Positions 59,710 through 61,863 of a stretch of 64,000 bases of DNA are shown piece after piece (the first letter of the stretch is position 1; every line of letters begins with the position of its first letter). This DNA comes from Citrobacter sp. MGH106 (lineage in GTDB: Bacteria > Pseudomonadota > Gammaproteobacteria > Enterobacterales > Enterobacteriaceae). The stretch lies in assembly GCF_001037495.1 (NCBI RefSeq), contig NZ_KQ089823.1:496001-560000 (forward strand), written 5' to 3'. The notes under the pieces were generated by a model. That model was given only the letters and a program-made list of their open reading frames with translations, was not told the origin of the DNA and did not search any database. A program made the translations under genes and the position numbers.

Positions 59710-59722
59710 TTTTTAGTAAACA
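59710..59722 (+). promoter_or_regulatory. Putative operator O1 of the ROK/LacI operon
   Basis: TTTTTAGTAAACA differs from the perfect palindrome at 59807 by one base (T for G). It lies just upstream of the predicted -35 box. The best candidate ligand is the LacI-family regulator encoded at 60817. Confidence 0.5.
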
Positions 59723-59735
59723 CAGGTGTTCTGCC

Positions 59736-59765
59736 TTGACGCTCTATTTGCCATGTTTTTATATA
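59736..59765 (+). promoter_or_regulatory. Predicted sigma-70 promoter of the ROK kinase-LacI operon
   Basis: A -35 box TTGACG (59736-59741) is followed after 18 bp by TATATA (59760-59765). Transcription would start near 59772, about 100 bases before the kinase ATG. The promoter lies between the two 13-bp palindromes. Confidence 0.6.
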
Positions 59766-59806
59766 AAAACTATCGTCAAAATTCTATTTTGTGATGTCTG
59801 TCTTTG

Positions 59807-59819
59807 TGTTTAGTAAACA
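59807..59819 (+). promoter_or_regulatory. Putative operator O2 (perfect palindrome) of the ROK/LacI operon
   Basis: TGTTTAGTAAACA is a perfect inverted repeat (TGTTTA-G-TAAACA). Its centre is 97 bp from that of the near-identical site at 59710-59722 and about 40 bases downstream of the predicted transcription start. Confidence 0.55.
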
Positions 59820-59870
59820 AAAAAGTCAGTCTGTGCAGAGATAATTCTGCGTCAAGCGAATGGGGGAATC

Positions 59871-60809
59871 ATGAGGCTCGGACTGGATATTGGTGGGACT
59901 AAAATCGAAGCAGTGGTGATTGATAACACGGGTGAGATTATTTACCGCGAACGATGCAGTACACCAAAGCAGAGCTACGGCGATTTTTTCCGGGTCGTCA
60001 CGGACGCTATCGTGAAAGCCATGAAGACCGTTAATCGACCATTATCAGTCGGTGTGGGTGTGCCCGGCGCAGTCGACAGTGATGGGTTAATAAAAAACTC
60101 CAATATTCTGGTGCTCAATCAACAACCCTTCGCACGCGATCTTGAGCAGGCGCTGGGAATACCTGTGCCCGTAACCAACGACGCCAACTGTTTTACGTTG
60201 TCGGAGGCCATGGACGGAAGCGGACGCGGGTATGGAGTAGTGTTTGGAGTGATCCTTGGTACGGGATGCGGTGGTGGATTGTGTGTCGATAACCGTTTGA
60301 TCTCAGGCCCTAATGCCTGTGCGGGAGAGTGGGGACATAATGCGCTACCGCGTTACAATGAAGAGCGGGACGGCGCGGCGGTAACGTGCTATTGCGGGCA
60401 GTTAAACTGTATTGAGAGTTTTATTTCGGGCAGCGGCCTGGAGCGTCAGTACCTGAATCACACCACGCAACATGCCGGTGTTCCTCAAATAATGAAACGG
60501 GTCGAGTCTGGTGACGTAGACGCCTGCCTGCTATGGGAGCGCTACTGCGATCAATTAGCCCGAGCGTTAGCTGGCGTGGTCAATACGCTTGATCCAGATG
60601 TTATCGTGTTGGGCGGCGGAGTATCCAATATTGGCATACTCTATTCAGGCTTACAGGCGCGGGTGGCACAGTACGTATTTGGAAAACAGTGCCGCACGCC
60701 GATTGTCCAGGCTCGTCACGGCGACAGCAGCGGCGTACGTGGTGCCGCCTGGCTGGGTGCACAACAGCCTGCGACCGCAACTACCCGTATGATGACGCAC
60801 GATCAATGA
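59871..60809 (+). CDS. ROK-family sugar kinase (fructokinase Mak-like)
   Basis: This 312-residue protein is a ROK-family kinase, most like the Mak/fructokinase and NagK groups; the sugar is not known. The N-terminal phosphate loop is LGLDIGGTKIEAVVID. The catalytic Asp is residue 104 (VTNDANCFTLSEA). A glycine-rich ATP site ILGTGCGGGL is near 129-137. The ROK zinc motif is His156 (EWGHNAL) with Cys173, Cys175 and Cys180 (CYCGQLNCIE). All key residues are present, so it should be active. The ATG at 59871 follows GGGGGAATC. The downstream LacI-type regulator starts 7 bases after the stop. This pair is absent between fre and fadA in K-12. Confidence 0.9.
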   Translation: MRLGLDIGGTKIEAVVIDNTGEIIYRERCSTPKQSYGDFFRVVTDAIVKAMKTVNRPLSVGVGVPGAVDSDGLIKNSNILVLNQQPFARDLEQALGIPVPVTNDANCFTLSEAMDGSGRGYGVVFGVILGTGCGGGLCVDNRLISGPNACAGEWGHNALPRYNEERDGAAVTCYCGQLNCIESFISGSGLERQYLNHTTQHAGVPQIMKRVESGDVDACLLWERYCDQLARALAGVVNTLDPDVIVLGGGVSNIGILYSGLQARVAQYVFGKQCRTPIVQARHGDSSGVRGAAWLGAQQPATATTRMMTHDQ

Positions 60810-60816
60810 GAGTGAA

Positions 60817-61797
60817 ATGACGAAACCTGTACGAATCAGAGATATTGCCGAAGCCTGCGGTGTGTCGGTTGGCGCTGTTTCCCGCGCACTAAAAGGGCAA
60901 CCGGGACTGCGTGAGGATACCCGATTGCGCATTATTTCCGTGGCGGAACAGCAGGGCTACGATTTCTCCCGTCTGCGTAGCGATAAACTCAGGCGCGTCC
61001 TGTTTTTGTTGCATCGCCAGCACAACATTAGTCGGGCATTACCGTTTTATTCACCGCTGTTGTTGGGCATAGAAGAAGTATGTCGTGATCACAATATTGC
61101 GCTGAGCTTTCTCTCTATTGGCCCTGGTGACGCAGTGGGTGAACAGGTGATGCTGCATCAGCCTGATGCGCTGATCTGTGCCGGATTTTTTGAGCCTGAA
61201 CTGCTTGGGCTACTGCAACAAATGAAGCTGCCAATGGTACTGGTGGATTTGTGGGTGCCTGGTTTGCCATGCGTCAATCCGGATAATACCCAGGGTGGCT
61301 ATCTGGCCACTCGACATCTAATCGAACAAGGGCGCAGTCGCATTGCCTTTCTTGCCAGCACACTCTCTCATTACAGTATTCGCCAGCGTGAGAAGGGCTA
61401 TCGCCAGGCGCTGTATGACGCTCGTCTACTGATGCCGCCAGAGTATGAAGCCATTGCACCACCGCTTCTGGATACTGAACAATCACTGGTCGAGGCGGTC
61501 AACGAATTGTTCAGGTTGCCCGAGCCGCCCGATGCCATTTTTGCTTATAACGATGCGGCAGCGCTGGTGGTTCAGCGAGTGTGTGCGCAGCAAAGTATAC
61601 GTATCCCGGAAGATCTTTCACTGGTAGGGTTTGATGATATTGATGCCGCAGCCTGGTCACATCCACCGCTGACCACCATTGCCGTTGATAAACAGCAACT
61701 GGGGCGTGAAGCACTGCGTTTGTTGTTGGAAGAACAGCAGGAACAGAATTTGTTGCTACCCGTGCAGTTAGTGGTCCGTACCAGTTCTGTGAAATAA
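60817..61797 (+). CDS. LacI-family transcriptional regulator
   Basis: The 326-residue protein has the LacI/GalR layout. The N-terminal helix-turn-helix and hinge are PVRIRDIAEACGVSVGAVSR then ALKGQPGLREDTRLRIISVA (about residues 4-60). The periplasmic-binding-like effector domain follows, with VDLWVPGLPCVNPDNTQGGY, RIAFLASTLSHYSIRQREKG, DAIFAYNDAAALVVQRVCAQ and LVGFDDIDAAAWSHPPLTTI. It lies 7 bases after the ROK kinase gene, so it is translated from the same mRNA and most likely controls that operon through the palindromes at 59710 and 59807. The effector is unknown; a sugar or sugar phosphate handled by the kinase is the natural guess. Confidence 0.9.
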   Translation: MTKPVRIRDIAEACGVSVGAVSRALKGQPGLREDTRLRIISVAEQQGYDFSRLRSDKLRRVLFLLHRQHNISRALPFYSPLLLGIEEVCRDHNIALSFLSIGPGDAVGEQVMLHQPDALICAGFFEPELLGLLQQMKLPMVLVDLWVPGLPCVNPDNTQGGYLATRHLIEQGRSRIAFLASTLSHYSIRQREKGYRQALYDARLLMPPEYEAIAPPLLDTEQSLVEAVNELFRLPEPPDAIFAYNDAAALVVQRVCAQQSIRIPEDLSLVGFDDIDAAAWSHPPLTTIAVDKQQLGREALRLLLEEQQEQNLLLPVQLVVRTSSVK

Positions 61798-61822
61798 AAA
61801 ACCCGCCCCTGACAGGCGGGAA
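61796..61822 (-). terminator. Rho-independent terminator of fadBA
   Basis: CCCGCC (61802-61807) pairs with GGCGGG (61815-61820). Read on the minus strand the stem is followed by TTTTTTA, so it ends transcription coming from fadA. It touches the stop codon of the LacI-type gene, which therefore has no clear terminator of its own. Confidence 0.75.
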
Positions 61823-61863
61823 AAACGGCAACTAATTGTTATACAGTGGCGCTGTCGTTGCAG

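What the first reader, a model, noticed from the sequence alone, without database searches (positions are those of the whole stretch)
59710..59819. Twin 13-bp palindromes flank the promoter of the ROK/LacI operon
TTTTTAGTAAACA (59710-59722) and TGTTTAGTAAACA (59807-59819) are the same sequence but for one base. Their centres are 97 bp apart, close to 9 helical turns. They bracket a TTGACG-18-TATATA promoter. This is the geometry of repression by DNA looping, as in lac and gal. The motif has an odd G centre and lacks the central CpG common in LacI-family operators, so the regulator may have a distinct specificity.
Basis: partly seen in the sequence, partly recalled or inferred. Interest (0 to 1): 0.55.

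Follow-up and report, generated by a model that had tools for sequence, protein, structure and literature searches.

The report
Paired operators of an unusual LacI-type repressor

Summary
The two sites are as described (59710-59722, 59807-59819; centres 97 bp apart); only the right one is a perfect palindrome. TTTAGTAAA is the commonest 9-mer upstream of 24 non-redundant relatives of this regulator (19 of 24; shuffles mean 0.14), so these are very probably its operators. In the window's genome the exact 11-mer TTTAGTAAACA occurs only here.

Looping is only partly supported. Two or more sites occur in 36 of 39 enterobacterial loci, and 11 relatives have a conserved site inside the kinase gene. 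But spacing varies (65-190 bp) without a detectable common helical phase, and seven other Citrobacter loci have 65-69 bp, not 97. A better conserved but still unproven candidate is a -10-like element 14 bp past the proximal operator centre, with a CRP-like half-site at -41.5.

'Distinct specificity' is supported: 33 of 33 aligned members lack the A-x-x-L hinge motif, and the operator is odd and CpG-free. Most likely: local autorepression from a proximal operator at about -26, helped by a distal auxiliary site. New variant of a known kind.

The parts
59710..59722 (+). distal (auxiliary) operator TTTTTAGTAAACA, centre 59716, about -123 from the inferred start
   Evidence: (19.0 bits of a possible 22.6), conserved in 8 of 8 Citrobacter loci aligned with up to one base change
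59807..59819 (+). proximal operator TGTTTAGTAAACA, perfect odd palindrome, centre 59813, about -26 from the inferred start
   Evidence: 21.8 bits; invariant in 8 of 8 Citrobacter loci
59787..59805 (+). conserved TTTTGTGA (59787-59794) and the CRP-like TGTGA-N6-TCTTT (59790-59805), centre 59797.5 = -41.5
   Evidence: TTTTGTGA invariant in 8 of 8 Citrobacter; TGTGA at the same distance from the operator in 11 of 24 loci, at most 1 at any other offset. Only 7 of 10 CRP core letters; not reached by the two-mismatch scan
59827..59832 (+). candidate -10 element CAGTCT; inferred transcription start about 59839
   Evidence: [TC]ANN[CA]T at +14 from the operator centre in 14 of 20 representative loci; next best offset 6, then 3. 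Pattern chosen after seeing the data; CAGTCT itself matches TATAAT at 2 of 6 only
   Evidence: not listed by the scan
59871..60809 (+). ROK-family sugar kinase, 312 aa, nearest NCBIfam model fructokinase (342 bits, below its cut-off 443)
60817..61797 (+). LacI-family regulator, 326 aa, presumed to bind both sites
60955..61002 (+). codons 47-62 of the regulator: shortened hinge GYDFSRLRSDKLRRVL without A-x-x-L

Best explanation
The ROK-LacI operon is a local, self-controlled sugar-kinase operon. The LacI-type regulator, a member of a clade with a shortened hinge, binds as a dimer to the odd palindrome TGTTTA-G-TAAACA. The proximal site (centre about -26) covers the -35/spacer region of the promoter and abuts a CRP-like half-site at -41.5, so bound repressor would keep out RNA polymerase and/or CRP. 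The distal site (about -123) is an auxiliary operator that raises repression, either by a short DNA loop formed through dimer-dimer contact or by raising local repressor concentration. A sugar or sugar phosphate linked to the kinase would release it. Shown here: sites, their link to this regulator clade, frequent site multiplicity, the hinge change, conserved positions of the -10-like and CRP-like elements. Inferred: binding, the direction of control, CRP action, the effector, any loop.
For: The motif tracks the regulator: 19 of 24 non-redundant upstream regions against shuffle mean 0.14; at least one 12-bit site in 39 of 39 enterobacterial loci and 6 of 6 others, two or more in 36 of 39 (matrix trained on 24 of these loci); exact motif in 1 of 20 remoter relatives with a full-length hinge, relaxed motif in 2 of 20. 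The window's genome has the 11-mer only here. Tandem pairs in Citrobacter: 7 of 17 genomes, all seven carrying the regulator, one of them (G005) broken. The clade's hinge is shortened. Proximal operator, TTTTGTGA and their spacing are invariant in 8 of 8 Citrobacter loci. -10-like element at +14 in 14 of 20.
Against: No binding or expression data. The promoter elements are weak in the window (2 of 6 and 7 of 10 consensus letters), found after looking, and unsupported by the generic scans. Loci outside Enterobacterales have a single site (6 of 6), so a second site is not essential to the regulator. Spacing is not conserved. The genome has no second strong target, and the inducer is unknown.
Confidence: 0.72

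Rival explanations
1. Repression by a defined DNA loop: dimers at the two sites join across 97 bp and the loop, set by helical phase, locks a promoter inside it.
For: Several sites per locus in 36 of 39 enterobacterial loci; sites bracket the conserved TTTTGTGA; operator-like sites inside the kinase gene about 640-660 bp downstream of the proximal site in 11 relatives, recalling lac O2 (from memory).
Confidence: 0.4
2. Two independent operators without contact: the proximal one does the repression, the distal one is a relic of, or serves, another promoter (for instance divergent transcription as in the GH127, GH36 and FAD-oxidoreductase loci).
For: In the GH127, GH36, FAD-oxidoreductase and GH38 loci the sites lie between divergent genes, where two sites are expected; variable spacing; single site outside Enterobacterales.
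Against: In Citrobacter the neighbour fre points the same way, so there is no divergent gene to serve, yet the distal site is kept in 8 of 8 loci with at most one base change.
Confidence: 0.35
3. The sites belong to a different regulator, or are chance A+T-rich palindromes.
For: Single copies of the 11-mer occur in 10 of 13 genomes without a close regulator.
Against: Motif follows this regulator clade through changed gene neighbourhoods into loci only 45-57% identical at the protein; no pair in any of those 13 genomes.
Confidence: 0.05

Closest known systems
LacI/GalR family repressors with canonical hinge (PurR, CcpA, RbsR)
   Same: Helix-turn-helix (PF00356, 36.2 bits over cut-off 27) and sugar-binding core (PF13377, PF00532); best Foldseek matches are RbsR, CelR, CcpA, PurR.
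   Different: Query has 4 fewer residues in the hinge in three of the four full-length alignments printed (CcpA, 3h5o, CelR; RbsR gaps placed differently); no A-x-x-L; odd operator without central CG. In Ravcheev 2014 (PMC4052901, section 9 read) 1251 of 1303 LacI regulators have even palindromes, 1173 with a central CG.
Odd-palindrome LacI regulators (LacR, GalR, EbgR in Ravcheev 2014)
   Same: Odd centre; about 4% of regulators in that survey.
   Different: Their palindromes are given as 17, 19 or 21 nt; here a 13-15 nt core carries the conservation. That those regulators keep a full hinge is recalled, except for the LacI-like L095 of this genome, whose hinge reads AQQL.
lac and gal looping systems of E. 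coli
   Same: Several operators, one of them inside a gene in 11 (+595/598) and 3 (+222) relatives; a CRP-like element nearby.
   Different: Spacing not phase-conserved, no LacI-type tetramerisation tail, no intragenic site at 8 bits or more within 1000 bases downstream of the kinase start in the window. Features of lac and gal are from memory apart from the titles and passages seen.
CytR (CRP-linked LacI repressor)
   Same: Best NCBIfam score of the regulator (138.5 bits, cut-off 436); operator next to a CRP-like half-site.
   Different: Far below cut-off; compact odd palindrome, whereas CytR sites are spaced octamers (recalled).

Membership tests
LacI/GalR family | N-terminal LacI helix-turn-helix | tested here: met
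   PF00356, 36.2 bits, cut-off 27, residues 7-48; the match stops at profile position 43 of 46
LacI/GalR family | periplasmic-binding-protein-like sugar-binding core | tested here: met
   PF13377 and PF00532; fold matches RbsR, CcpA, PurR
LacI/GalR family | hinge helix with A-x-x-L that inserts at a central CG (typical, not universal; Leu in 82% of domains according to Camas 2010, PMC2978694, passages seen) | tested here: not met
   33 of 33 aligned clade members lack it (by eye); model shows a 4-residue helix 50-53 (block 51-60 pLDDT 68); in the same genome 14 of 21 LacI-type domains match the strict pattern and 6 more have a variant by eye, this one has none
LacI/GalR family | even palindromic operator with central CG (typical, not defining) | tested here: not met
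   odd centre, G in 43 of 47 sites, T in 4
lac/gal-type looping | two or more operators per promoter region | tested here: met
   two in the window; two or more in 36 of 39 enterobacterial loci
lac/gal-type looping | helically phased spacing | tested here: inconclusive
   no common phase, n 16 groups, low power; 97 bp in the window, 65-69 in seven congeners
lac-type looping | C-terminal tetramerisation helix | tested here: not met
   protein ends 7 residues after its last strand 316-319; aligned to LacI 164-328 of 360
lac/gal-type looping | looped complex joining the two sites | not testable with these tools
   needs DNA-binding and looping assays
class II CRP-dependent promoter | CRP site centred at -41.5 and a -10 element | tested here: inconclusive
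   positions conserved but 7 of 10 and 2 of 6 consensus letters; generic scans silent

The most novel reading that the evidence does not exclude
A distinct branch of the LacI family, in Enterobacterales and some other bacteria, has lost about four residues of the intercalating hinge helix and reads a short odd CpG-free operator (T[GT]TTTAGTAAACA). In Enterobacterales it commonly works with two or three such operators at variable distance, including auxiliary operators written into the coding sequence of its own ROK kinase, whose protein sequence there varies while the DNA motif stays.
Probability: 0.6. Interest if true: 0.55.

Novelty: new variant of a known kind. Interest (0 to 1): 0.42.

Why it matters
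If true, the clade is a natural test of how LacI-type repressors read and bend DNA without the usual hinge-helix intercalation at a central CpG, and of how a repressor works with operators at many different spacings. Operators inside a coding sequence are rare in surveys (under 1% of LacI-family sites, Ravcheev 2014). The finding also gives a usable motif for finding targets of this regulator in other genomes.

Tried and rejected
Window-wide CRP scan with two mismatches: no match at the locus. Helical-phase test: no signal; the 16 groups were drawn up by hand and one of them (GH36_b) rests on second sites of only 8.5-9.6 bits. Other targets in the genome: TKTWTASTAAAMA gave two further places, both inside long open frames, so rejected as operators; other one-mismatch places were not examined one by one. 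Weak sites at +811 of the kinase gene in two loci were set aside because they fall on the conserved codons of FGKQ (by eye). An insertion signature beside fre was considered: the E. coli match at 61786-61850 is the stretch right after fre, with a terminator-like hairpin, not a duplicated fre end. Literature: the literal motif words gave 124 papers, 20 listed, none about this regulator by title; the searches gave no paper on this clade by title or abstract start. That it is unpublished is therefore not claimed.

Rows dropped: of 70 loci, the 26 at about 25-35% identity (L064-L089) were left out of the site counts; 20 of them served as control. L086, which also has a short hinge stretch, and five partial or end-limited matches (L076, L078, L081, L088, L089) were not used. 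Four loci in the counts have broken reading frames in the regulator (L052, L054, L057, L062).

Intragenic-site test: the first version used 11 loci picked because they have the site, which favours it. Repeated: rank 1 of 293 windows with those 11 and also with L023, which lacks the site, added (third-position identity 0.84, mean 0.41); rank 32 of 293 with all 19 non-Citrobacter kinases and 63 of 293 with 26, though still highest among windows of equally variable protein (1 of 46; 1 of 34).

Full report
What is there. A ROK kinase gene (59871-60809) and a LacI-type regulator gene (60817-61797) stand between fre (ends 59578) and the convergent fadA. None of 5,426 complete E. coli genomes has a match covering 80% or more of this stretch.

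Do the sites belong to the regulator? A scan for relatives of the regulator gave 70 loci; I used the 44 at 45-93% identity plus the window. Without assuming a motif, the commonest 9-mer in 24 non-redundant 400-bp upstream regions is TTTACTAAA/TTTAGTAAA: 19 of 24, shuffles mean 0.14 and maximum 2, random segments 4 of 1526. A matrix built from these (47 sites, centre G in 43) finds at least one site of 12 bits or more in 39 of 39 enterobacterial loci and 6 of 6 others; it was trained on 24 of these loci, so the shuffle test is the independent one. The gene next door changes: GH127 with a GPH transporter, a melibiase-type enzyme with a LacY-type transporter, GH38, GH1, or an FAD-oxidoreductase/hydantoinase cluster. 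The motif stays. Remoter relatives with a full hinge have it in 1 of 20 loci (2 of 20 relaxed).

How many sites, how far apart? Two or more sites lie between -400 and +950 in 36 of 39 enterobacterial loci, and upstream alone in 34 of 39; the 6 loci outside Enterobacterales have one. Neighbouring upstream sites are 65 to 190 bp apart (196-197 if weak second sites in three loci count; one extra weak site in L038 is 22 bp away). Citrobacter: 65, 65, 66, 66, 66, 69, 69 and, only in the window, 97. Over 16 hand-made groups there is no common helical phase (p 0.11-0.82; scan p 0.29). This does not exclude looping in any one locus.

Sites inside the kinase gene. In 26 kinase genes, 16 positions of 23,562 reach 12 bits, against 5 of 255,475 elsewhere in the loci, four of those five lying in one region shared by two GH38 loci. 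Ten of the 16 lie at +595/598, an eleventh (L032) reaches 11.2 bits there; three lie at +222. In the +595 group the protein varies (LFSKH, KFSEH, RFTKH, MFNKH, NYSKH) while the DNA motif stays; the four-codon window is the best conserved at third positions (rank 1 of 293, also with the site-less L023 added; 32 and 63 of 293 in the wider sets, where most genes lack the site). The window's kinase has no such site.

Promoter. Aligned on the proximal operator, [TC]ANN[CA]T stands at +14 in 14 of 20 loci (next 6, then 3), and TGTGA at -23 in 11 of 24 (at most 1 elsewhere); in five others TCACA stands at -31. Read as a -10 element this puts the start near 59839, the operator at -26 and the CRP-like half-site at -41.5 (about -60.5 in the other group). 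This is an inference from position: consensus quality is poor and the generic scans do not report it.

The regulator. 33 aligned members share GYD-x-x-[RK]L and no A-x-x-L. Against CcpA, 3h5o and CelR the query lacks four hinge residues; the RbsR alignment places gaps differently. The model (mean pLDDT 89.1) has a four-residue helix at 50-53, in a block of pLDDT 68. Of 21 LacI-type domains in the genome, 14 match the strict hinge pattern, 6 more have a variant by eye, and this one has none. Relatives below 35% identity whose hinge was displayed have a full-length hinge, except L086. In the literature, Leu-54 inserting at a central CG is the rule and exceptions are rare (Camas 2010, passages), and odd palindromes are about 4% of LacI-type regulators (Ravcheev 2014, section 9). 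The pairing of a shortened hinge with an odd CpG-free operator is thus coherent but untested.

Specificity. The exact 11-mer occurs in the window's genome only at the two sites. In 26 other genomes single copies are common (23 of 26), but pairs within 200 bp occur only in 6, all with the regulator; 13 of the 26 have no close regulator and no pair.

Verdict. The looping geometry and the promoter as first read are not supported in detail. The unusual operator and hinge make this a new variant of a known kind.

Noticed in passing
L025, L027-L035, L042, kinase gene +595/598: Operator-like site inside the ROK gene in 11 loci, in a stretch where the protein varies but third codon positions are conserved.
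   Followed up: partly
L048, L049, L051, kinase gene +222: A second intragenic site (20.6 bits) in Klebsiella/Enterobacter GH127 loci, where the third upstream site of kinase-less GH127 loci such as L045, L046, L050 and L062 is missing.
   Followed up: no
L052 (Citrobacter sp. Cu233): Regulator and kinase only partly match (regulator residues 100-325, kinase 1-202) and the distal operator has a one-base change; looks like a decaying copy.
   Followed up: no
L038 1456 and 1475, L044 1324 and 1342: Pairs of operator-like sites 18-19 bp apart about 3.5 kb from the operon start in GH38 loci, upstream of another gene: a possible second target.
   Followed up: no
window 61786-61850: Stretch with a terminator-like hairpin right after the regulator gene resembles the stretch just after fre in E. 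coli (91%), so the operon sits between fre and the following sequence that E. coli has.
   Followed up: partly
L022, L030, L037 (Kluyvera georgiana); L029, L054, L057, L062 (Kluyvera genomosp. 3): Three and four copies of the regulator in one genome; several copies in Kluyvera genomosp. 3 have broken frames, perhaps sequencing indels.
   Followed up: no
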